Origin: Tsukamurella pulmonis
GTDB taxonomy: Bacteria; Actinomycetota; Actinomycetes; Mycobacteriales; Mycobacteriaceae
Reading direction: 5' to 3'
Assembly (NCBI RefSeq): GCF_900103175.1
Contig: NZ_FNLF01000002.1
Span: 4,230,136-4,294,135 of the forward strand
Length of the DNA: 64,000 nucleotides
In this document: one piece after another, positions 8,634 through 41,548 of the stretch
How the letters are laid out: each line of letters begins with the position of its first letter
How positions within the stretch are numbered: the stretch's first letter is position 1
Translations under genes and position numbers: made by a program
Notes under the pieces: generated by a model
The model's database searches: none
Seen by the model: the letters and a program-made list of their open reading frames with translations, nothing else
What the model was told of the DNA's origin: nothing

Positions 8634-9161
8634 TCAGGCTGGCGATGTGTCGGCGGGCTGGTCATCGGGATCGTCGGGTGTGCGACAGCAACGCTCGAGC
8701 CACAGCGCCGCCGCGAGGAGCAGCAGGGCGCCCGCGACGCCGATCCACGCGCCCGGACGATCGGCGTGGGTGGCCGTCAGTCCGGCGCCCTCGGTGAGCA
8801 GGAAGACCAGCATGCCGCCGAAGAAGCCCAGCGCCACCGCGCCGAGGTACGCCGACGCCTTGGCCAGCGCCACCGCGCGCGCGACGGCGATGGGATGGAT
8901 CCGTCCCGGTCCCCACCCGACCTGCCCCTGGGACAGCCGGGAACGCACGAGCTGCGCGATATAGAGATCGGCCGCGGCGACGCCGTAGAGCAGCGCCCCG
9001 GCCCAGACGGGCACCACCGGCACGACGTTGCGCACAAGCAGGTACGAGCCGAGGCCCACACCCAGCACGATGACGACCAGCTCGATCCAGCCGGTCGCGC
9101 GCACGGTGGGACCGCCCGGTTCCTCCGGGTCCCGGTTCGGGTCCTTCGACGGTCCGCTCAC
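8634..9161 (-). CDS. DUF3180 integral membrane protein
   Basis: A 175-residue protein with four predicted membrane helices (WIELVVIVLGVGLGSYLLV, VWAGALLYGVAAADLYI, ASAYLGAVALGFFGGMLVFL, WIGVAGALLLLAAALWL) separated by basic loops. It matches the Rv3605c position after folK. GTG start at 9161 overlaps the folK stop by four bases (GTGA), so it belongs to the folate operon. No biochemical role is known. Confidence 0.85.
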   Translation of the reverse strand: MSGPSKDPNRDPEEPGGPTVRATGWIELVVIVLGVGLGSYLLVRNVVPVVPVWAGALLYGVAAADLYIAQLVRSRLSQGQVGWGPGRIHPIAVARAVALAKASAYLGAVALGFFGGMLVFLLTEGAGLTATHADRPGAWIGVAGALLLLAAALWLERCCRTPDDPDDQPADTSPA

Positions 9162-9646
9162 AGCCGGGTCACCTCCGCGCTCTCGTCGGCGGGCAGGGCC
9201 CGCAGCAGGTCGGCGACGCAGCCGTGCCCCGGCAGCTGCGCGTCCGGGTCGGCGTCGAGCCACGGCAGCAGCACGAAGGCCCGCTCGTGCGCGCGCGGGT
9301 GCGGCAGGGTCAGCTCGGGATCGTCGGAGAGTACGGGCTCCCCGCCCTCCCACACGGCGATGACGTCGACGTCGAGAGTCCGCGGGCCCCAGCGGATCTC
9401 GCGGACGCGCTGCGCTGCGGCCTCCTGCTCGCGGGCGAAGGCGAGCCAGCCGGCGGCGTCGCGGGCCGGATCGTCGACGAGCACCGTCGCGTTGACGAAG
9501 TCGTCCTGCTCGACCCCGCCCCACGGCGGGGTGCGGTAGAGCGCCGAGGCGCGGACCAGCGCGGGGCCGAGGGCCTCGATCGCGGCGCGGACGGCGGCGT
9601 CCGCCGCGCCGAGGTTGGCGCCCAGCGAGAGCACGGCGCGGCTCAC
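9158..9646 (-). CDS. folK: 2-amino-4-hydroxy-6-hydroxymethyldihydropteridine diphosphokinase
   Basis: Pyrophosphorylates the pterin alcohol made by FolB, feeding FolP. The 162-residue protein has VLSLGANLG near its start, [18 protein letters not shown], the [12 protein letters not shown] signature and [16 protein letters not shown] start at 9646 overlaps the folB stop (GTGA). It lies in the order folE-folP-folB-folK, as in mycobacteria. Confidence 0.96.
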
Positions 9647-10023
9647 GGCAGGCTCCGCGCGCCGGAGCGCGAGCGGCGGGCCACGACGGCGACATCGGCG
9701 AAGGTGAGCGGGATCGGAGCCGAGGGCTTGTGCACCGTGACCTCGACGGCGTAGACCTTCTCGTCCGCCACGACGGCGTCGGCGATCTCCGCGGCGACGG
9801 TCTCGATGAGGTTGCGCGGCTCCCCCGCGACGATGTCGTGGGCGCGCTGCGCGAGCGCCCCGTAGTCGACGGTGTCGGCCAGGTCGTCCGAGGCGGCCGC
9901 CGGCCGCGAATCGAGCCACAGCACGAGGTCGATGACGAACTCCTGCCCGTCGCGCCGCTCGTGCTCGAAGACTCCGTGGTGGCCGCGCACGCGCAGGCCG
10001 GTCAGTTCGATCCGATCCGCCAT
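9643..10023 (-). CDS. folB: Dihydroneopterin aldolase
   Basis: Cleaves dihydroneopterin to the hydroxymethyl pterin and glycolaldehyde. The 126-residue protein shows [17 protein letters not shown] with the conserved GxxGVxxxER region, TVDYGALA and [11 protein letters not shown] (catalytic Glu region), and [12 protein letters not shown] near the end (conserved Lys). ATG at 10023 overlaps the folP stop (ATGA). Confidence 0.96.
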
Positions 10024-10862
10024 CAGGCTCCGCCCTTCCGCCAGGCCTCGGTCACGGCGATGGCGTCCGCCGTCGACCGCACGTCGTGGACGCGGACGCC
10101 CCACACCCCCGCCTGGGCGGCGAGTGCGGAGACGGCCGCGGTGGCCGTTTCGCGGCCCGCGGGTTCGCGGCCGCCCAACAGTTCGCCGAGGAAGCGCTTG
10201 CGCGAGGCGCCCACGAGGATCCGCAGGCCCGTCGCCTGCAGCGTCGGCAGTCCGTGCAGCAGCGCCCAGTTGTGGCTCGCGTTCTTGGCGAAGCCGAGGC
10301 CTGGGTCGAGCACGATCCGCTCGGCGGCGATGCCCGCGGCCACGGCGGCGTCCGCCTGGTGCAGCAACTCGTCGCGCACCTCGGTGACCACGTCGTCGTA
10401 CTCGGTGATCTCGTGGTGGATGCCGGCCCACACCGGGCCCGGCGCGCCGGGCGAGGGGCGCCAGTGCATGAGGATCCACGGCGCCGTGGAGTCCGCGACG
10501 ACGCGGGCCATGCCGGGATCGGCGCGACCGCCGGAGACGTCGTTGACGACGGATGCGCCGGCCTCGAGCGCCGCGGCGGCGACGGAGGCGCGCATGGTGT
10601 CCACGGAGACCGTGACGCCCTCGGCGGCGAGCGCCGCGATGACGGGGACCACGCGGTCGCGCTCCGTCTCGGCCGGAACGCGGTGCGCGCCGGGGCGGGT
10701 GGACTCCCCGCCCACGTCGACGATGGCGGCACCGTCGGCGACCAGGGCGCGCGCCCGCGCGACGGCCGCCTCCGGATCGAGGTAGCGACCGCCGTCCGAG
10801 AAGGAATCGGCGGTCACGTTCACGACGCCCATGATGAGCGTGCGGCCGGGCTCCGTCGTCAC
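10023..10862 (-). CDS. folP: Dihydropteroate synthase
   Basis: Condenses the pterin pyrophosphate with p-aminobenzoate; the sulfonamide target. The 279-residue TIM barrel has [46 protein letters not shown]-type [16 protein letters not shown] and [15 protein letters not shown] start at 10862 overlaps the folE stop (GTGA). Full-length and intact, so probably the catalytic FolP1 rather than the paralogue FolP2. Confidence 0.97.
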
Positions 10863-20620: not shown

Positions 20621-21295
20621 CTAGAGCTTGCCGGCGACCCGCCGGATCAGGTCCTCGAAGACCGGCTCGTCAACGGCACCGCTCTGGTTCGGGTTGGCGC
20701 TCACCATCGCGAGCACCCCATTCTTGGTGAAGTACGCGGAGGCCGAGCGCACGGTCTGTCCAGCGCCGGTTCGAGTCGCCTCGAGAATGAAGCCATCGGC
20801 GCCGACCACATCTGCTGGAAGCGCGGCGCGCGTCGTCGTCTGCTTGAGCACGGTGCCGTAGGACAGCGAGCTGCACTCACCCGTCCCGGCCGCCTCGAAT
20901 ACCGACAGCCGTGCCGAGTTCGGAAGCAACGTGACACCGTAATTGGTCGCACCCTGCGACACGGTCTGTTGCCCGCCATACTTGATCGTCTCGAGCAGCT
21001 CCTGCTGCAGAGCGACGTTCTTGTCCTTGCACGTAGCCGGGGTGATCTCCGCGGCCTGCACTTGGCCGAAGGCCTGCATCGCCGACTGGAACGCGGTGTC
21101 GGGCGGCACCGTCGCAAGGGCGAACCCCTCCGGTAGGTCGGCTTGCGTGAGCAACTTCGCTTCGTCGACGGGAGGCGCCGACGACGGCGGCGCCGACGGC
21201 TCGTCGCCGCCACCGCCGCAGGCAGTGAGCAACAGGCCGGACGCGGCGACCGCCGCGAGCAGGCCCAGGGAACGGTTCGTGTCACTGCGGCGCAA
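20621..21295 (-). CDS. Secreted lipoprotein, unknown function
   Basis: A 224-residue protein with a lipoprotein signal ending in the lipobox LLTAC followed by GGGG and a Ser/Pro linker. The mature part has two further Cys (TCKDKN and TGECSSL) that may pair. I chose TTG at 21295, which gives MRRSDTNRSLGLLAAVAASG and has AGGAG 7 bases upstream; the longer frame adds a Pro/Ser/Arg-rich stretch that is not signal-like. Resembles small mycobacterial lipoproteins of the sensor or LpqN-like kind, but no family is certain. Confidence 0.78.
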   Translation of the reverse strand: MRRSDTNRSLGLLAAVAASGLLLTACGGGGDEPSAPPSSAPPVDEAKLLTQADLPEGFALATVPPDTAFQSAMQAFGQVQAAEITPATCKDKNVALQQELLETIKYGGQQTVSQGATNYGVTLLPNSARLSVFEAAGTGECSSLSYGTVLKQTTTRAALPADVVGADGFILEATRTGAGQTVRSASAYFTKNGVLAMVSANPNQSGAVDEPVFEDLIRRVAGKL

Positions 21296-21329: not shown

Positions 21330-24300
21330 CTAGACCTTACCGAACCCCCGGAGGAAGGCCGCCGCGAAGCCGGGGAAGGCCCCGTCGGCGATCGCACGCC
21401 GCGCCGCCGCGGCCAGCGAGACGAAGAAGTGCTCGTTGTGCAGGGCGCACAGGGTCACCGCCAGCCCCTCGTTGGCGACGAAGAGGTGGTGCACGTAGGC
21501 GCGCGTGAAGTCGTCGGCGCGATTGCCGCCGCCCGGCCGGTCCTTCGCGGGGTCGAGCGGGCGGAAGTCCGCGCGCAGAGCGGGATCGGTGACATCGAGG
21601 ACACCCGTCGAGGTGTAGACCCGGCCCTCGGCGGCCGCCCGCGCCGGCTCCGTGCCGTCGACGAGGTCGACGCCGGCCTCGATCGCGGCCAGCAGATCCG
21701 CGGGGCCGGTGATGCCGGCGAGGTAACGCGGCCGGTCGGAATCGAGCTCGCCGATCGCGGCGCGCAGCGCGCCAGCGTCGGCCGCGGGCGCGCCGACGCC
21801 CTCGATCCGGTAGCCGCCGAAGCCCAGTCCGCCGGCCCGGCGGTCCTCCTCGCCGAGGCGCCGCAGGGCGCGGGCGGCGGACCGTCGGCGCTCGGGATCC
21901 GCACCCCCGGTCACCACGGCCCACAGCGACAGGGCGTCGTGCCGGTCGGCGGTCTGCCAGGCGTGCTCGGCGAGCGCGCGGCGCGCCCAACGCTCGGTCC
22001 GCGCGGGATCCGCGGGATCGGCGAGGGCGAACGCGACGTCGAAGCCCATCCGGTGGGCCAGGCGCACCGCCTCCTCGGCGTCCCAGCGGTGCGGGGAGCC
22101 GTCCAGGCGGCCGCGGAAGGCGATGCCCTCGTCGGAGACCTTCGTCTTGCGCTGCTCGAGCACCGCGCCGACGCCGGTGTCGGCGATGGTGGGGGCCTGC
22201 CAGGCCATGGCCGTGCCGATCCCGCCCGCGCCCTCGATCACGTCGGCACCGGGCTGCAGGTACAGCTCGTGTAGGTCGAGGACGAGTGCGCGCGCCCCGA
22301 GCCCCGTCAGCTCGCGCGGGGTGAGGCCGGCGATGGCGCCGCGCCCGGCCACGGGCAGGTACGCGGGCGTGGCGATCTCGCCGCGCGGCACCGTCATCCG
22401 GCCGGTGCGCGAGCCGCCGGCGCCGGTGGCCTCGACGGTGAACCGCACCGCATCGGTGGTGCCGGCGGCGCGCAGGCGCGTGTTGCCGGCGATCGCCCGG
22501 TAGCCGGTACGCAGCTCCGCGAGCTCGGCGGCGAGGGTGGCGTTCTGCTCCCGCAGCTCGTCGATCTCGGAGCGCGAGGGCGGGACCGGCGCGGCGGGGA
22601 CGGGCGGTTGCCGGCGCGGCTGCGGGGCGACCGGTTGCCGCGCGCGGGGCCCCGACGGTGCGGGCGCGGGCGGCACGGCAGGGTGCGGCGCGAGGGGGCC
22701 GGTGGGCGGTTCGGTCACGGTCTCCTCCGTCGGTACGGTGCCGGCCACCGACTCCGCGGCGGCGCTGATCTCAGCGGCCTCGATCGTCGCAGGTGATGCG
22801 GGGTCGGCGCCATCCGGGGCCGTCGCCTCGATGCCCGCCGCGGTGCGCAGGGGCACGGACTTCCAGAACAGCACCAGGACCAGGCCGATCGCGGCCAGCA
22901 CGGTGACGGCGAGGAAGACGACGTCCATCGAGTCCGCGAAACCCGCCTTGAGCGGGTGGACGAGGGTGTCGGGGAGCGTCTGCAGAGCGGAGGTGTCCGA
23001 CATGACGTCGCTGACGGCGCTCGCATCGCCGTGCAGGAGCTTGGCCGCGAAGTCCTGCGCGGCGGGGCCGTCGTGGCCCGCGGCGGCGCGCTGCAGCGCA
23101 GCGGTGTACTCCGGATCCGCCGCGGCGTCGGAGAGCCGGGTGCTCATCTTGTTCGGCATCTGGGAGAACAGCACCGAGAGGAACACCGCGACGCCCAGCG
23201 TGCCGCCGATCTGCCGGAAGAACGTGGCGGCGGCGGTGGAGACGCCCATGTCGCGCGGCGGCAGGATGTTCTGCAGCGCGAGGGTCAGCGGCTGCATGAG
23301 GTTGCCGAGGCCGAAGCCGATCACGGCGGCGCCGGCCATGACCCAGCCGATCTCGACGTCGGCGCTGATGTAGTGCAGGGCGAACATGCCGGCGGTGAGC
23401 AGCACCGCGCCGATGATCGGGAACACGCGGTAGCGGCCGGTCCGGGAGATCATCTGGCCCGCGAGGATCGAGCCGAGCATGAGCCCGGCCACCATCGGCA
23501 GCATGAGGAAGCCGGCCTTCGTCGGGCTCGCGTCCCGCACCACCTGGAAGTACTGCGGGAGCAGGGAGATGCCGCCGAACATGGCCGCGCCCACGACCAT
23601 CGAGATGAGCACGCCCTGCGCGAAGATCCGGTTGCGGAAGATGCGCAGCGGGATGATCGCGTCCTCGCCCATCATCTTCTCGATGGCGATGAAGGCGAGC
23701 ACGCCGAGTCCGCCGACGACGTAGCAGGCGATGGCACGGCTCGAGCCCCAACCCCACTCCTGCCCCTGCTCGGCGACGATGAGCAGCGGCACGAGGCCGA
23801 CGGAGAGGGCGATGGCGCCGAACCAGTCGATGCGCACACCCTCGCGGCGGGTGTGCGGCAGGCGCAGCACGCGGAAGACGACGGCGAGGGCGACGATGCC
23901 GATCGGCACGTTCACCAGGAACACCCAGCGCCAGCCGGCGATGCCGAGGATCTGATCCGCACCGGAGAAGACGCCGCCGAGCACGGGGCCCAGCACCGAG
24001 CTGGTGCCGAAGACGGCGAGGAAGTAGCCCTGGTACTTGGCGCGCTCGCGGGGCGGCACGATGTCGCCGATGATGGTCAGCGCCAGCGACATCAGGCCGC
24101 CCGCGCCCAGGCCCTGGACCGCGCGGAACGCGGCGAGTTCGTACATCGACGTCGAGGTGCTGCACAGCAGGGAGCCGATCACGAAGACGGTGATGGCGAA
24201 CATGAAGAAGGGCTTGCGCCCGTAGATGTCGGAGAGCTTGCCGTAGAGCGGGGTGACGATCGTCGACGTGATCAGGTACGCGGTGGTGACCCAGGCCTGC

Positions 24301-24473
24301 AGCTTGTAGCCGTTGAGGTCGTCGGCGATGGTGCGGATGGCGGTGGAGACGATGGTCTGGTCCAGGGCGGCCAGGAACATGCCGGTCATCAGGCCGGAGA
24401 GGATGTAGAGGATCTGCTTGTGCGTCAGCCCCGAGGCCGAGGTCTCGACCGGGTCCAATGACGCCGCGGTCAT
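21330..24473 (-). CDS. MFS (DHA2, EmrB/QacA type) transporter fused to a degenerate tRNA-guanine transglycosylase domain
   Basis: One uninterrupted 1047-codon frame. Residues about 17-545 are a 14-helix DHA2 drug exporter (motif A GKLSDIYGRKPFF, motif C region GTSSVLGPVLGG). Residues 546-675 are a Pro/Ala-rich linker ending in a short coiled coil (SEIDELREQNATLAAELAEL). Residues 676-1047 (bases 22448-21330) align along their length with bacterial TGT: PRGEIATPAYLPV, ADTG for TDSGG (Asp765), VDLVDG for MFDC (Asp939), FTRAYVHHL and LHNEHFF. The zinc Cys-x-Cys-x2-Cys is missing (PLDPAKDRPGGG instead), as are TDSGGFQ and ARNG. Both catalytic Asp positions remain. It overlaps marR (ATGA), so MarR probably controls it. 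Fusion or merged genes cannot be told apart without homologues. Confidence 0.88.
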   Translation of the reverse strand: MTAASLDPVETSASGLTHKQILYILSGLMTGMFLAALDQTIVSTAIRTIADDLNGYKLQAWVTTAYLITSTIVTPLYGKLSDIYGRKPFFMFAITVFVIGSLLCSTSTSMYELAAFRAVQGLGAGGLMSLALTIIGDIVPPRERAKYQGYFLAVFGTSSVLGPVLGGVFSGADQILGIAGWRWVFLVNVPIGIVALAVVFRVLRLPHTRREGVRIDWFGAIALSVGLVPLLIVAEQGQEWGWGSSRAIACYVVGGLGVLAFIAIEKMMGEDAIIPLRIFRNRIFAQGVLISMVVGAAMFGGISLLPQYFQVVRDASPTKAGFLMLPMVAGLMLGSILAGQMISRTGRYRVFPIIGAVLLTAGMFALHYISADVEIGWVMAGAAVIGFGLGNLMQPLTLALQNILPPRDMGVSTAAATFFRQIGGTLGVAVFLSVLFSQMPNKMSTRLSDAAADPEYTAALQRAAAGHDGPAAQDFAAKLLHGDASAVSDVMSDTSALQTLPDTLVHPLKAGFADSMDVVFLAVTVLAAIGLVLVLFWKSVPLRTAAGIEATAPDGADPASPATIEAAEISAAAESVAGTVPTEETVTEPPTGPLAPHPAVPPAPAPSGPRARQPVAPQPRRQPPVPAAPVPPSRSEIDELREQNATLAAELAELRTGYRAIAGNTRLRAAGTTDAVRFTVEATGAGGSRTGRMTVPRGEIATPAYLPVAGRGAIAGLTPRELTGLGARALVLDLHELYLQPGADVIEGAGGIGTAMAWQAPTIADTGVGAVLEQRKTKVSDEGIAFRGRLDGSPHRWDAEEAVRLAHRMGFDVAFALADPADPARTERWARRALAEHAWQTADRHDALSLWAVVTGGADPERRRSAARALRRLGEEDRRAGGLGFGGYRIEGVGAPAADAGALRAAIGELDSDRPRYLAGITGPADLLAAIEAGVDLVDGTEPARAAAEGRVYTSTGVLDVTDPALRADFRPLDPAKDRPGGGNRADDFTRAYVHHLFVANEGLAVTLCALHNEHFFVSLAAAARRAIADGAFPGFAAAFLRGFGKV

Positions 24474-24946
24474 TCGCCGTCCCGCATCAGCTTGAGCGCC
24501 TGCTCGAACTGCTGCAGCGCCCGGGTGCCGAGGACCACGAACTGGTCGATCTCCTCGTCGGTCCACTCCTCCATCAGCGGCCGCAGCTTCGCGTTGCGCT
24601 GCTGCCGGATGAAGTCGACCTTCGCCCGGCCCTCGTCGGTGGCGGACACCAGCGCCGCGCGCCGGTCGGACGGGTCGGCGGTGCGCTCCGCGTAGCCGAG
24701 GCCGGTGAGCGTGCTGACGTACCGGCTCGCCGTCGACGGGTCGGTGTGGATCTGCTCGGCGAGCACGGACGAGCGCATCGGACCGTCCTTGACCAGGGCG
24801 AAGAGTGCGGTGTACGCGGCGAGCTCCACGCCGTCCGGAGCGACCGCGTGCCGGGTCATCACCGCGTGGCGCTCCTTGAGCCGGGTCAGCTCGGCGATCA
24901 CGCCGACGATCCCCTCGATCCGGTCGGCCCGTTCCTCGTCCGTCAT
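24470..24946 (-). CDS. MarR family transcriptional regulator
   Basis: A 158-residue winged-helix regulator: the recognition helix region LAEQIHTDPSTASRYVSTLTGLGYAERTADPSDRRAALVSAT includes the wing motif DPSDRRA. The dimer helices are at both ends. It sits directly before the MFS-TGT gene with a 4-base overlap, the classic arrangement of a local repressor of an efflux pump. Start ATG at 24946 has GGAGG four bases away. The upstream 100 bases are AT-richer (ACTACGTGCACCCTACAACT) and probably hold the operator, although no clean palindrome was seen. Confidence 0.92.
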   Translation of the reverse strand: MTDEERADRIEGIVGVIAELTRLKERHAVMTRHAVAPDGVELAAYTALFALVKDGPMRSSVLAEQIHTDPSTASRYVSTLTGLGYAERTADPSDRRAALVSATDEGRAKVDFIRQQRNAKLRPLMEEWTDEEIDQFVVLGTRALQQFEQALKLMRDGE

Positions 24947-37474: not shown

Positions 37475-38136
37475 CCACGACGATGGCACCGACGCCCGAG
37501 CATCGCGCGATACACCGCACGGCGGAGCGGACATGGCGGCGCGCAGGCGTGCTCCGTCGCGATCGAAAGCAGTTGCACGAGGAGCTGTCGGTCGAACTGA
37601 CGGGCGCTCAAGCCGACGGCGTCGAACCGAGCGCGATCCTCGGAGACGATTCGCGTCGCACTCTCCGCAGCTGGGCACACGCGCGCGAGATGTCCGGCCG
37701 CGCACTTCGACTCGCCCTGGTCGTCCCAGCCGCCATCCTCGGCATCCTCACGGGAACATCCCTCGTCCTCGCCACGCTCCACGGCGCCTTCCGGGGCTGG
37801 TCCGACACGCTGGATCCGGGCCGACCGGCTTTCGCTCTCGCCTTCTACGCCTCCGGCGCCCTACTCGGCTACCTGTGCGCGCTGGTCAGCGTCGGCGCCG
37901 CCCTGCACGGCTTCGAAGATCCGCACGCCACGTCGACGATGCGCCGCCTCGCGCTACTCCTGCCCGCTGGTGCGGCACTGTGCGCGATCGGTGGTGTCGC
38001 CGTGGCCTCGGTACGCGGATTCACCACGACCACGCCGACCTTCCTCGCCGTCGCGGGCATCGTCGTCGCCGGACTCGTCGCGACGGTCGCGCTCGCCCGA
38101 TACCTCGCCGTCCGGCCCGAGATCGCCTCCACCTGA
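37471..38136 (+). CDS. PadR-associated membrane protein with N-terminal helical prefix domain
   Basis: A 221-residue protein: an N-terminal cytoplasmic helical domain (RRDRKQLHEELSVELTGA, then GVEPSAILGDD) like the prefix domains found beside PadR regulators, then four membrane helices (LVVPAAILGILTGTSLVLA; FALAFYASGALLGYLCAL; LALLLPAGAALCAIGGVAVA; FLAVAGIVVAGLVATVALA). ATG overlaps the padR stop. Pairs of this type respond to envelope or drug stress in other Gram-positive bacteria; function here is unknown. Confidence 0.78.
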   Translation: MTTTMAPTPEHRAIHRTAERTWRRAGVLRRDRKQLHEELSVELTGAQADGVEPSAILGDDSRRTLRSWAHAREMSGRALRLALVVPAAILGILTGTSLVLATLHGAFRGWSDTLDPGRPAFALAFYASGALLGYLCALVSVGAALHGFEDPHATSTMRRLALLLPAGAALCAIGGVAVASVRGFTTTTPTFLAVAGIVVAGLVATVALARYLAVRPEIAST

Positions 38137-38176
38137 TCAACCGGGCACACGCGCACGACGACGCACGTGGCGACTC

Positions 38177-40030
38177 CTACTCGGGTCGCTGGGGAGGCAG
38201 GTTGATCGAGGTGGCGGGGTTGTGGTCGTACTCCTCCGTCTCCGGCGCGGCCGGCGGCTTCGGACGGGTCGCGTGCTCGCCGGTGGCCGGCCGCGGGGCG
38301 GGCTGGATCGGGCGGGGCGGCGCGGGCCGGCGCGCGGCGACGGGGTGCATGCTCGTCGGCGGGATGGGCTCGCCCGGGGCCTGCTGGGGCGGGCTCGACG
38401 GGGGCGGCGAGACCCGGGAGGCCTGCTGCGGCGGCACGACCGGCGAGGCCGCGGTCGGGGGCGCGGGCGGCACCGGCGGCTGCTGGCCGGGAGCGGGTTG
38501 CGCGGGCCGCGGCGGCGGTCCCTGCGGGGCGGGCTGCGCGGGCGGTCCCTGGGGCGCCTGGCCCGCCGGCCCCTGTTGCGGCGCGGGCTGGGCCGCACCG
38601 GACGGACCGGAGCCGGACGGAACGGAGCCGGACGGACCGGAGCCGGGCTGGCCGGGAGCGGGCTGAGGCGGGCCGGGCTGCGCCGGGCGCTGCACCGGCA
38701 TGGCGCGGGTGGACAGGTCCTCGGGCTGCTGCGGCCGCTGGATCGGCACCGCGGTGGTCTCGGGCGCGCCCTGCTGGAGGGGGTCGGCGCTGTCGACGAC
38801 GACCACCCGGGCCGCCGCCTCCGCGGCGTTGGCCCGCGCCACCTCGACGGTGTCGGCGGTCGCGACCGCCACGCCGAGCCGTCGCTTGGCGTAGCCCTCG
38901 GGCTTGCCGAACAGGCGCAGGTCGCTCTCGGGCACGTCGAGCGCGCGGCCCACGCTGTCGAACGCGACGGAGCTGCTGTCCTTGCTGCCGTAGATCACCG
39001 CGGACGCCGCGGGCGACATCAGCGAGGTGTCCACGGGCAGGCCGAGGATCGCGCGGGCGTGCAGCTCGAACTCGGAGAGCCGCTGCGAGCCCAGCGTCAC
39101 CAGGCCGGTGTCGTGCGGGCGCGGGGAGACCTCGGAGAAGTAGACGTCATCGCCCTTGACGAACAGCTCCACCCCGAAGACGCCGCGGCCGCCGGTGCCG
39201 CCGTCGCCGAGGGCGGTGGTGATGCGGCCCGCGACCGACGTCGCGGCGTCGTAGGCGGCCTGGCTCATCGCCTGCGGCTGCCAGGACTCGACGTAGTCAC
39301 CGTCGGACTGCCGGTGCCCGATGGGCTCGCAGAAGCGGGTGACGACCTTGCCGCGCTCGGCGTCGTAGACGCGCACGGTGAGCAGCGTGATCTCGTAGTC
39401 GAAGTCGACGAACCCCTCGACGATGACCCGCTCGTTGCGGACGCGGGCGCCCTCCACGGCGTACTCCCAGGCACCGTCGAGCTCCTCGATCGAGCGCACC
39501 ACCGATTGGCCCTTGCCCGAACTCGACATGACCGGCTTGATCACGCACGGGAAGCCGACCTCGCGGGCCGCGGCGCGCACCTCGTCGAGCGAGGAGGCGA
39601 AACCGTACGGCGAGCAGGGCAGGCCCAGCTCCTCGGCGGCGAGCTTGCGGATGCCCTCGCGGTTCATCGTCAGGGAGACGGCGCGCGCGGTGGGGATGAC
39701 CTCGGCGAGGCCCTCCTCGTCGATCGCGACCAGGGCGTCGGTGGCGAGCGCCTCGATCTCGGGGACGACGAAGTCGGGCTTCTCCTCCTCGATGACGCGA
39801 CGGACCTCGGCGGCGTCGGTCATGTCGATGACGTGGCTACGGTGCGCGACCTGCATCGCGGGCGCGTTCGCGTACCGGTCGACGGCGATCGTCTCGACGC
39901 CGAGGCGCTGGAAGGCGATCACCACCTCCTTGCCCAGCTCGCCCGAACCCAGCATCAGCGCCTTCGTGGCACCGGGGGTGAGCGCCGTGCCGATCCGGGG
40001 GTTGCCGCCGGTCTCGCTGAGGTTCGTCAT
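38177..40030 (-). CDS. purT: Formate-dependent GAR transformylase PurT with a long Pro/Gln-rich tail
   Basis: Adds formyl to GAR using ATP and free formate, a folate-free alternative to PurN. Residues about 14-410 match Pur[32 protein letters not shown], the ATP-grasp segment [28 protein letters not shown] and [12 protein letters not shown]. After the family core comes a tail of about 190 residues, mostly Pro, Gln, Ala, Gly ([28 protein letters not shown]). Its start carries ETTAVPI (424-430). ATG at 40030. Intact, in a genome with folate synthesis. Confidence 0.93.
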
Positions 40031-40159
40031 GGCACCATTCTGGCAAACGCCGCGCCGCGCGGTGCGGCTGCCGACCCGACGATGCCCGATCGGTCGCCGT
40101 TGCTCTGCGTTTCGTTCGTTATCGCACGGACCCATCGGGGCGGTGCCTATGTTCGGTGC

Positions 40160-41548
40160 ATGAAACCACTGGTGATCCGCAGCGCCGTGGTCGCGTCACT
40201 GGGCGGCCTCATCTTCGGCTTCGACACGGCCGTCATCTCCGGCGCGGAGAAACAGATCCAGGACCGGTTCGGGCTCGGCGACGCCGCGCTGGGGTTCGTC
40301 GTGACGACGGCGCTCATCGGCACCATCATCGGCGCGCTGGTCGCGGGGCGCCCCGCCGACCGGTTCGGCCGCAAGAAGGCGCTGACCGTCATCGGCGTGC
40401 TGTACGTGGTGGGCGCGCTGGGCTCCGCGTTCGCGCCGAACGTCGAGCTGCTCATGCTGTTCCGGTTCATCGGCGGCCTCGGAGTCGGCGCCTCCAGCGT
40501 GTGCGCGCCGATCTACACCGCGGAGATCTCCCCGCCGAAGCACCGCGGGCGGCTCGTCGGGCTGGTGCAGTTCAACATCGTGCTCGGCATCCTCGTCGCG
40601 TACGCCTCGAACGCGGTCATCCGCGCCGTCGACGACGGGCCGCACGCGTGGCGCTGGATGCTCGGCGTGATGGTGGTCCCGTCGGTGCTCTTCCTCGTCC
40701 TGCTCGCGACGGTGCCCGAGACGCCCCGGTGGCTGGCGGCGCACCGTCGGAGCGCAGAGGCGCGGGCGGTCTCCGAACGGCTGTGCGCGACGATCGAGGA
40801 GTCGAACGCCCAGATGGCGGAGATCGAGGAATCGCTCGCCGCCGAGTCCGAGGCGCAGGGCGTGAAGTTCTTCACCCGGCGGCACCGCAGGGTGATCATG
40901 CTGGCCGTCGCGATCGCCTTCTTCAACCAGCTCTCCGGGATCAACGCGATCCTCTACTACGCGCCGCGCGTGATCGAGGACGCCGGCGCCAGCACCAACG
41001 CCTCGTACCTGATGTCGATCGCGGTGGGCGTGATGAACCTGGTCGCGACGATGGCGGCGCTGACCGTGATCGATCGACTGGGGCGGCGTCGGCTGATGCT
41101 CGTCGGATCCGTCGGGTACCTGCTCTCGCTGGGCTTCCTCGCCGTGGTCATGTTCGTCTACGAGGGCCGCTTCGACGGGACGTCGTCGGTGCTGGTGCTG
41201 GTCGGGCTCATGGTCTTCATCGCATCGCACGCGTTCGGCCAGGGCGCGGTGATCTGGGTGTTCATCTCGGAGATCTTCCCCAACCGCATCCGCGGCCGCG
41301 GCCAGGCGCTGGGCAGCTTCACGCACTGGGTGTTCGCGGCGATCACCACCTTCGCCTTCCCACCCATCATCGGCGCGCTCGGCGGCGGCGTAGCCTTCTC
41401 CATATTCTTCGTGGCGATGCTCGGTCAGCTGATCTGGGTGATCCGGGTGATGCCGGAGACCAAGGGCATCCCGCTCGAGGAGATGGAATCCAGACTGGGA
41501 CTCGCGGACGGCACCCGCTCCGAACTCCCGGAGCCGAAGGGACGTTGA
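40160..41548 (+). CDS. MFS sugar/H+ symporter
   Basis: A 462-residue 12-helix sugar porter: [24 protein letters not shown] (motif A), [12 protein letters not shown], the [16 protein letters not shown] motif that lines the sugar site, DRLGRRRLM, and [12 protein letters not shown] at the end. It would import a hexose, pentose or polyol. TATGTT ends 6 bases before the ATG, so a leaderless start is likely. A pfkB kinase follows after one base, suggesting import and phosphorylation of the same sugar. Confidence 0.92.

What the first reader, a model, noticed from the sequence alone, without database searches (positions are those of the whole stretch)
21330..24473. Drug exporter fused in frame to a degenerate tRNA-guanine transglycosylase domain
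One 1047-codon frame joins a 14-helix DHA2 efflux pump (about residues 17-545), a coiled-coil linker, and a full-length TGT-like domain (676-1047). TGT homology spans the whole domain, both catalytic Asp positions are kept (Asp765, Asp939), but the zinc Cys-x-Cys-x2-Cys, TDSGGFQ and ARNG are lost. The TGT fold binds 7-deazaguanines or tRNA, so the domain might sense or deliver a purine-like ligand to the pump, or be a repurposed base-exchange enzyme at the membrane. A local MarR probably controls it. I know of no described pump with this domain.
Basis: partly seen in the sequence, partly recalled or inferred. Interest (0 to 1): 0.82.

Follow-up and report, generated by a model that had tools for sequence, protein, structure and literature searches.

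The report
Drug pump carrying dead tRNA-enzyme tail
In Tsukamurella bacteria a drug-export-type pump carries, in the same protein, a copy of a tRNA-modifying enzyme that looks catalytically dead; the fusion was mentioned in print in 2024, but selection keeps the tail, even in one strain that lost the pump, which suggests that it now docks to the working enzyme, itself fused to another transporter.

Summary
Confirmed: minus strand 21333-24473 encodes one 1047-aa protein: DHA2/EmrB-type MFS pump, Pro/Ala linker, coiled coil, full-length TGT (PF01702) domain. It is no artefact: 14 of 15 Tsukamurella loci with this tail have the pump in the same frame, behind a marR gene; in the 15th (PLM1) the pump is gone and the tail alone follows marR. 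All four TGT domains found in this genome are transporter tails; only the one on an MmpL protein has intact motifs. The genus lacks QueA and QueF (0 of 16) but has YhhQ (16 of 16), so it probably salvages queuine. The window domain keeps the D102 and D280 positions, has lost D156, Q203, the TDSGGFQ loop and ARNG, and evolves under purifying selection (dN/dS 0.11-0.14 in the six closest pairs computed). Missing zinc cysteines are no sign of decay: the intact MmpL-TGT lacks them too. The fusion itself is published (Quaiyum 2024: Tpau_0550, Tpau_4044); I found no mention there of a dead domain, several carriers or pairing. Best reading: a non-catalytic, QTRT2-like docking module that ties a MarR-linked pump to the membrane-bound queuine TGT (confidence 0.43).

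The parts
21330..24473 (-). DHA2 pump - linker - coiled coil - TGT-like fusion gene, 1047 aa, ATG at 24473, stop at 21330-21332
   Evidence: pump and tail in one frame in 14 of 15 fetched Tsukamurella loci with this tail
22839..24425 (-). DHA2/EmrB-type MFS pump, about residues 17-545; best NCBIfam scores to OtrB and Tcr3, whose cut-offs are not reached
   Evidence: stand-alone homologs 64-65% identical in three genomes of other genera of the family
22584..22838 (-). Pro/Ala-rich linker, residues 546-630, fast evolving
   Evidence: dN/dS 0.12-0.63 in the six closest of 12 pairs computed
22449..22583 (-). coiled-coil segment, residues 631-675, shared with the four other transporter-TGT fusion types of the genus, not seen in the two stand-alone TGT rows printed beside it
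   Evidence: weak DivIC match 635-666, below cut-off; dN/dS 0.03-0.21 in the six closest pairs
21333..22448 (-). TGT-like domain, residues 676-1047: D765 (D102) and D939 (D280) kept; D156->A818, Q203->T855, C281->G940, TDSGGFQ loop deleted, ARNG lost; TRAYVHHLF (Y330/H333 region) kept
24470..24946 (-). marR-family regulator gene directly upstream, overlapping the fusion gene by 4 bases (start placed by the 477-base CDS annotated in T. tyrosinosolvens; the open frame reaches 25003 as a GTG start)
   Evidence: homolog found in 15 of 15 DHA2-A loci
20621..21295 (-). downstream gene of a predicted lipoprotein (lipobox by eye), no Pfam match; start placed by the 675-base CDS annotated in T. tyrosinosolvens

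Best explanation
Shown: a MarR-linked DHA2 pump whose C-terminal tail is a TGT domain that groups, with the same coiled coil, with the intact TGT tail of an MmpL protein in the same genome; the tail has lost base- and tRNA-contacting residues but is under purifying selection, and in one strain (PLM1) it stands alone behind marR after loss of the pump. Inferred: the tail is a non-catalytic docking subunit. Through the TGT C-terminal dimer helices and the shared coil it pairs with itself or with the catalytic MmpL-TGT, much as non-catalytic QTRT2 pairs with QTRT1 in eukaryotes, and so holds the pump in one membrane complex with the queuine-inserting enzyme. The pump itself probably still exports a drug-like or purine-like compound under MarR control.
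For: Four TGT domains found in the genome, all transporter tails. Stand-alone TGTs form one side of a 100/100 branch from all fused copies; the coil is common to the five fusion types. Selection: dN/dS 0.108-0.141 for the TGT domain in the six closest of 12 pairs computed (91 possible), like the pump (0.064-0.178), the linker looser (0.123-0.633). PLM1 has no orthologous pump (none in 19 kb; best genome match 41% identical) yet keeps coil plus TGT, with dN/dS 0.26-0.37 against 8 other rows, as for pump-bearing G007 (0.24-0.38). Of columns fixed in 23 intact TGTs, 16 of 17 from residue 970 on are kept in at least 85% of 14 orthologs, against 59 of 149 before it; Y330 and H333 are kept in 14 of 14. 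Published, passages seen: W326, Y330, H333 and F92 form the dimer hot spot (PMC5395182); D102, D156, Q203 contact the base (same); QTRT2 has replaced catalytic residues, with Glu at the D280 position, yet forms the heterodimer (PMC6165067). The eroded second MmpL tail has Glu there in 7 of 8 rows.
Against: F92 of the hot spot is Ala in 14 of 14 DHA2-A orthologs (it is Phe in 23 of 23 intact TGTs, in G010 and in 7 of 8 second-MmpL tails), and the loop-helix motif that meets the partner's helices has changed (G709A, K715A). Conservation of the C-terminal part may serve the fold alone; the boundary at 970 was chosen after seeing the data and the rows are related, so the Fisher p (1e-5) is no probability. 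For DHA2-C the same contrast is weak (12 of 17 against 71 of 149). New fixed residues in the pocket (N733D, Y735H, H736E) point to a new pocket role as much as to docking. PLM1's pump loss may be too recent to show in dN/dS. In distant pairs dN/dS is higher (0.66 for window against G010). No structure prediction, no interaction data.
Confidence: 0.43

Rival explanations
1. The DHA2 domain has become a transporter of a queuosine precursor (queuine, preQ1 or preQ0), and the TGT tail is a relic or handing-over site of that pathway, as the fusion-based search of Quaiyum et al. supposed.
For: Fusion with TGT was used as a hint of Q-precursor transporters (PMC11130926, passages). The genus lacks QueA (0 of 16) and QueF (0 of 16) and so should depend on uptake. 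An MFS of Bartonella henselae was shown there to carry preQ0/preQ1.
Against: A known precursor transporter family, YhhQ/QPTR, is present in 16 of 16 genomes. The pump scores as a DHA2 exporter, is MarR-linked, and 64-65% identical stand-alone homologs exist in other genera. The base pocket is lost. PLM1 keeps the tail without the pump. A Corynebacterium propinquum MmpL tested in that paper gave no transport in E. coli, though the authors do not rule out poor expression. I saw no Tsukamurella protein among the tested candidates in the passages read.
Confidence: 0.22
2. The TGT-like tail is a ligand sensor that gates the pump: a rebuilt barrel pocket (new D733, H735, E736 next to kept D765 and D939) binds a purine-like or other compound and switches transport.
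For: 18 positions fixed as one residue in 23 intact TGTs are fixed as another residue in 14 of 14 orthologs, including N733D, Y735H, H736E and D818A; strong purifying selection in close pairs.
Against: PLM1 keeps the tail without a pump to gate. The second-MmpL copies, which share the module, have lost much of the pocket stretch by deletion, yet occur in 8 of 16 genomes. The G010 copy lacks D733, H735 and E736. No ligand known.
Confidence: 0.12
3. The tail is a repurposed enzyme, for example a base-exchange or hydrolase activity at the membrane that uses D939 and D765.
For: Both catalytic Asp positions are kept in 14 of 14 orthologs.
Against: Base- and tRNA-contacting residues and the active-site loop are lost. 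At the D102 position G010 has Glu and DHA2-C Asn; at the D280 position the second MmpL tail has Glu in 7 of 8.
Confidence: 0.08
4. The tail is a passenger left by duplication and recombination, with no function.
For: The module has been copied onto several transporters, and a second-MmpL homolog without room for it exists in G012.
Against: dN/dS well below 1 over the TGT domain while the linker before it is looser; pump and tail in one frame in 14 of 15 loci, and the tail kept where the pump is lost.
Confidence: 0.08
5. The fusion is an assembly or sequencing artefact.
For: T. tyrosinosolvens NCTC13231 lists only the TGT part as a gene.
Against: One open frame with a pump match in 14 of 15 fetched Tsukamurella loci; 14 loci of named records found in another collection, all Tsukamurella (many are the same genomes). 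In NCTC13231 the pump (93% identical) and TGT parts are both present, in order.
Confidence: 0.01

Closest known systems
Tpau_0550 (MFS-TGT) and Tpau_4044 (MMPL-TGT) of Tsukamurella, Quaiyum et al. 2024 (PMC11130926)
   Different: The paper (abstract, outline and passages seen; a word search of the main text for inactive, catalytic, degenerate, pseudoenzyme, DHA2 and coiled found none; supplements not seen) treats them as candidate precursor transporters. New here: the MFS-borne domain looks non-catalytic, is under selection, shares a coil with four other fusion types and coexists with an MmpL-borne TGT that has intact motifs.
QPTR (YhhQ)-TGT fusions named in the same paper
   Same: Transporter fused to bacterial TGT.
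   Different: A known preQ1/preQ0 transporter there; an exporter-type pump and a degenerate TGT here.
QTRT1/QTRT2, the eukaryotic queuine TGT heterodimer
   Same: Queuine salvage without de novo synthesis; one catalytic and one eroded TGT protein in one organism. The second-MmpL tail has Glu at the D280 position in 7 of 8 rows, as QTRT2 does.
   Different: The Tsukamurella members are tails of transporters and group with each other against stand-alone actinobacterial TGTs; no heterodimer has been shown. QTRT2 has Glu and Cys at the two catalytic positions, where the window domain keeps both Asp.
MarR plus DHA2/EmrB drug efflux operons (EmrR-EmrB type; recalled)
   Same: marR gene directly upstream with overlap; DHA2 pump over the TIGR00711 cut-off.
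   Different: Carries the TGT tail; no EmrA-type partner gene was looked for.
OtrB / Tcr3 tetracycline efflux pumps
   Same: Best NCBIfam scores over the pump domain (429.8 and 404.6 bits).
   Different: The curated cut-offs (999, 1000) are far from reached; substrate unknown.

Membership tests
TGT fold family (PF01702) | score over the curated cut-off, full-length domain | tested here: met
   224.6 bits against 26.3, profile 3-354 of 357
Functional tRNA-guanine transglycosylase (TIGR00430 equivalog) | score over the equivalog cut-off | tested here: not met
   189.2 bits against 306.75
Functional tRNA-guanine transglycosylase | D102 and D280 (Z. mobilis numbering) | tested here: met
   D765 and D939 in 14 of 14 orthologs
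Functional tRNA-guanine transglycosylase | base contacts D156, Q203 and the Tyr/Phe106 loop | tested here: not met
   Ala at 818 in 14 of 14; Thr at 855 in 12 and Ala in 2 of 14; loop columns deleted. D819 is one residue on, so the D156 column could be shifted by one.
Functional tRNA-guanine transglycosylase | zinc ligands CxCxxC | tested here: not met
   absent, but also absent in the intact MmpL-TGT and in 5 of 12 stand-alone TGTs, so not discriminating in this lineage
QTRT2-like non-catalytic TGT subunit | eroded active site with a TGT of intact motifs in the same organism | tested here: met
   intact TDSGGFQ / FDE / VQG / ARNG in 11 of 11 full MmpL-A tails aligned; an MmpL-A-type match in 16 of 16 genomes. 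Catalysis itself not tested.
QTRT2-like non-catalytic TGT subunit | dimer interface kept | tested here: inconclusive
   Y330 and H333 kept 14 of 14; position 326 Phe (Tyr or Phe in the intact ones); F92 lost 14 of 14; loop-helix changed
QTRT2-like non-catalytic TGT subunit | forms a heterodimer with the catalytic subunit | not testable with these tools
   needs pull-down or native mass spectrometry
DHA2 family MFS exporter (TIGR00711) | score over the subfamily cut-off | tested here: met
   272.3 bits against 230.2
Queuosine precursor transporter | transports preQ0, preQ1 or queuine | not testable with these tools
   no transport data; a known transporter family (YhhQ) is present as well
Transporter-TGT fusion (Quaiyum 2024) | transporter and TGT in one polypeptide, Tsukamurella | tested here: met
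   one open frame; the polypeptide itself was not observed

The most novel reading that the evidence does not exclude
Tsukamurella runs a split, membrane-bound queuine transglycosylase assembled from transporter tails: the catalytic half hangs from an MmpL protein and a non-catalytic, QTRT2-like half hangs from a MarR-linked drug pump, so that drug or purine stress and wobble-base Q34 modification are physically coupled. The coil-plus-TGT tail has become a plug-in module found on five different transporters of two superfamilies, and in one strain on none.
Probability: 0.22. Interest if true: 0.8.

Novelty: new variant of a known kind. Interest (0 to 1): 0.5.

Why it matters
Transporter-TGT fusions are being used to guess missing queuosine-precursor transporters. 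If the pump-borne domain is a dead enzyme kept for docking, that inference needs care in this genus, and TGT would join the enzymes reused as protein scaffolds. A bacterial pair of a catalytic and a non-catalytic TGT at the membrane would be an independent counterpart of QTRT1/QTRT2 and would make a link between drug efflux and tRNA wobble modification directly testable.

Tried and rejected
Artefact of assembly: rejected by conservation of the frame. Zinc loss as a sign of decay: rejected, since the intact MmpL-TGT and 5 of 12 stand-alone TGTs lack the cysteines too. Fusion outside the genus: none seen. Of 298 order genomes, 61 have a TGT match; in the 58 that are not Tsukamurella the TGT frames are 405-948 aa; I fetched 18 of the 58, and none has a match to the four transporter queries in the TGT frame. 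Genome collection: 14 of 14 loci are Tsukamurella (the scan used two short peptide patterns, so distant copies could be missed). Viral contigs: none. Promoter or terminator near the gene: no consensus match. A long frame in the window (37970-41548) is no second fusion: Pfam sees only a sugar-type MFS at its end. Structure prediction could not be run, so no fold search was made; pocket and interface are judged from sequence only. A search for mammalian TGT at the mitochondrial membrane found no held paper, so I make no use of that recollection.

Found when checking this report: I had taken PLM1 (L100) for a split frame; searches show that the pump is missing there and the tail stands alone. I moved the odds a little for that reason (best reading 0.40 to 0.43, precursor transporter 0.25 to 0.22, sensor 0.15 to 0.12, repurposed enzyme 0.07 to 0.08, novel case 0.20 to 0.22). 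One search added a second genome (G011) with the DHA2-C fusion.

Literature searches. Only PMC11130926 was found to hold Tsukamurella with queuosine, or the gene names; the library holds open-licence papers only, so 'not in print' is limited to that.
Full report
What is there. The 1047-aa frame lies on the minus strand, 21330-24473. It joins an MFS pump (MFS_1 28-427; TIGR00711 DHA2 efflux 272.3 bits, over cut-off; best NCBIfam scores OtrB and Tcr3, far below their cut-offs) to a TGT domain (688-1043, 224.6 bits). Third-position G+C is 0.94-0.98 in pump, coil and TGT and 0.87 in the linker, as expected of coding sequence in a window with 72% G+C. A marR-family gene lies directly upstream with an ATGA overlap; a homolog was found in 15 of 15 DHA2-A loci of the genus. 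Downstream is a gene for a predicted lipoprotein without a Pfam match.

Not one fusion but a family. The genome is a Tsukamurella (nearest named record T. tyrosinosolvens, 90% identical over 90% of the protein). Four TGT domains were found in it, and all four are transporter tails: MmpL-A-TGT (1425 aa, motifs intact, 383 bits to PF01702), MmpL-B-TGT (1199 aa, eroded), DHA2-B-TGT (982 aa, eroded) and the window gene, DHA2-A-TGT. Over 16 genus genomes: an MmpL-A-type TGT in 16 of 16, in an open frame of 1374 aa or more in 14 of 16 (the others are PLM1, where the frame is split at 613 aa, and a contig-edge fragment of G011); a DHA2-A-type tail in 15 of 16; MmpL-B-type in 8 of 16; DHA2-B only in the own genome; a fifth type, DHA2-C, in G010 and, cut by a contig edge, in G011 (74% identical pump, then coil and the start of TGT). 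Where I fetched loci and tested for a transporter in the same frame, DHA2-A passed in 14 of 15, MmpL-A in 10 of 12 and MmpL-B in 7 of 8. The failures are PLM1 (both types) and two contig edges (L114, L119); one MmpL-B pass (L118) has only part of the MmpL in the frame, the rest lying apart. G011, without a DHA2-A tail in view, holds a fragment of the DHA2-A pump (84% identical over residues 1-244 of the query).

A natural test: PLM1. In the complete genome of Tsukamurella sp. PLM1 (G009, L100/L157; 83% estimated completeness) the marR gene is followed at once by a tail-only gene of coil plus TGT, with an ATG before the coil; no pump match lies in the 19 kb, and the best pump match in that genome is 41% identical, so the orthologous pump is gone. 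The tail's dN/dS against eight other rows is 0.26-0.37, as for pump-bearing G007 at like distance (0.24-0.38). So the tail either works without the pump or lost it too recently to tell.

Genus-specific. In 298 genomes of the order, 61 have a TGT match; three are Tsukamurella, and in the other 58 the TGT frame is 405-948 aa. The 18 of these that I fetched have no match to the transporter queries in the TGT frame. A scan of a collection with one genome for each of 84,980 species gave 14 loci, all Tsukamurella. In 4 of 4 fetched loci of genus g6 an MmpL gene lies directly upstream of tgt on the same strand (L087, L176-L178), a natural two-gene forerunner of MmpL-TGT; in the four g5 loci (L079-L082) no MmpL match was seen. 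The three closest DHA2 homologs found in other genera of the family (64-65% identical) are stand-alone, with tails of 8-30 residues.

The biochemical setting. QueA: 0 of 16 genus genomes; QueF: 0 of 16; YhhQ/QPTR: 16 of 16. A glutamyl-Q tRNA(Asp) synthetase-like gene (name by my reading, no profile run) was found in 11 of 12 fetched MmpL-A loci (all but L122, whose contig ends just behind the gene) and in 10 of the 12 stand-alone loci L079-L090. Together this is the profile of a queuine salvager in which the only TGT with intact motifs that I found is bound to a membrane transporter.

What the window's TGT domain has lost and kept. Against 23 intact TGTs (11 MmpL-A, 12 stand-alone), 166 columns are fixed; in 14 DHA2-A orthologs (PLM1 included, G010 left out) 63 are kept in all, 55 are lost in all and 48 are mixed. 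D102 and D280 positions are kept in 14 of 14. D156 is Ala in 14, Q203 is Thr in 12 and Ala in 2, C281 is Gly in 14, R289 is Ala in 13 and Arg in 1; the TDSGGFQ loop is deleted. Published contacts of the base are D102, D156, Q203, G230 and L231, sandwiched by Y106 and M260 (PMC5395182, passage); M260 is already Leu in all 23 intact TGTs here. The zinc cysteines are missing, but also in MmpL-A-TGT and in the stand-alone TGTs of g5 (4 of 4) and g6 (1 of 1); the other 7 of 12 stand-alone rows keep them. Eighteen positions carry a new residue fixed in 14 of 14, among them N733D, Y735H and H736E near the pocket: change, not just decay. The G010 ortholog is an intermediate, with Tyr-His kept at 735-736, D156 kept and D102 as Glu.

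It is under selection. In the six closest pairs (TGT dS up to 0.37) dN/dS is 0.108-0.141 for the TGT domain, 0.064-0.178 for the pump, 0.030-0.209 for the coil and 0.123-0.633 for the linker. In the 12 pairs computed (of 91 possible) the TGT range is 0.108-0.658, highest in the pair window against G010. So a fast, loosely held spacer separates constrained parts.

History. On a tree of 48 TGT domains the 12 stand-alone ones are one side of a 100/100 branch and all fused copies the other. DHA2-B of the own genome falls inside DHA2-A, beside the G006/G012 copies (100/89, starred), although its pump is only 24% identical to the DHA2-A pump and the pump's closest genus homologs (49-50% identical, 14 of 16 genomes) lie at places without a TGT match: the tail was moved to another pump. 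G012 has an MmpL-B homolog (67% identical) in a 766-aa frame, too short for the tail. The G010 copy of DHA2-A does not group with the other DHA2-A tails but nearer the intact ones, and long branches (DHA2-C, MmpL-B) make their placement unsure, as the tool warned. The five fusion types share a coil of the kind 'L-R-x2-N-x3-A-x-L-x2-L-R-x2-Y-R', which the two stand-alone rows printed lack.

How it most likely works. A domain that loses catalysis but stays under selection usually keeps a binding role. The best-kept part is the C-terminal helices (16 of 17 intact-TGT columns kept, against 59 of 149 before residue 970), which in Z. mobilis hold the hot-spot residues W326, Y330 and H333 that meet F92 of the mate (PMC5395182, passage). 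In eukaryotes the queuine TGT is a pair of a catalytic and an eroded subunit (PMC6165067, passages). I therefore infer that the tail docks the pump to its own kind or to MmpL-A-TGT. Shown: fusion, loss pattern, selection, genus setting, common grouping, a pump-less tail in PLM1. Not shown: any interaction, any effect on Q34, the pump's substrate, or activity of MmpL-A-TGT. Against: F92 is lost in 14 of 14, the loop-helix motif has changed, DHA2-C shows the contrast only weakly, and the contrast was tested after the fact on related sequences.

Compared with what is known. Quaiyum et al. 2024 (PMC11130926; abstract, outline and passages seen) report MFS (Tpau_0550) and MMPL (Tpau_4044) domains fused to TGT, unique to Tsukamurella, and use such fusions as hints of precursor transporters. 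The fusion as such is therefore known. Their main text, by word search, does not hold 'inactive', 'catalytic' or 'degenerate'; the supplements were not available to me. The additions here are the loss pattern, the selection, the five carriers, the pump-less tail, the queuine-salvage context and the pairing idea: a new variant of a known kind.

Noticed in passing
L168, L169, L172 (DHA2 homologs in three genomes of two other families of the order): Homologs of this DHA2 pump carry C-terminal extensions of about 330 aa; in the two scanned (L169, L172) these hold CarboxypepD_reg repeats. C-terminal appendages recur in this pump family.
   Followed up: partly
L100 (PLM1), 8916-10794: A tail-only gene (coil plus TGT-like domain) directly behind marR, with the orthologous pump missing from the genome: a free-standing version of the module.
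   Followed up: partly
L087, L176, L177, L178: In four of four fetched g6 loci an MmpL gene lies directly upstream of a stand-alone tgt on the same strand, a likely two-gene forerunner of the MmpL-TGT fusion.
   Followed up: partly
L148 and L149 (G015): The second MmpL-TGT gene of this genome lies in two pieces about 3.7 kb apart, with unexamined DNA in between.
   Followed up: no
L079-L082, L087 and the aligned MmpL-A tails: TGTs with intact catalytic motifs but without the CxCxxC zinc ligands, beside stand-alone relatives that keep them.
   Followed up: partly
NZ_LR134453.1 (L017): A 26-kb record labelled 'plasmid 11' of T. tyrosinosolvens carries a run of ordinary chromosomal genes (tilS, hpt, ftsH, folE, lysS), so it is probably a mislabelled chromosome piece.
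   Followed up: no
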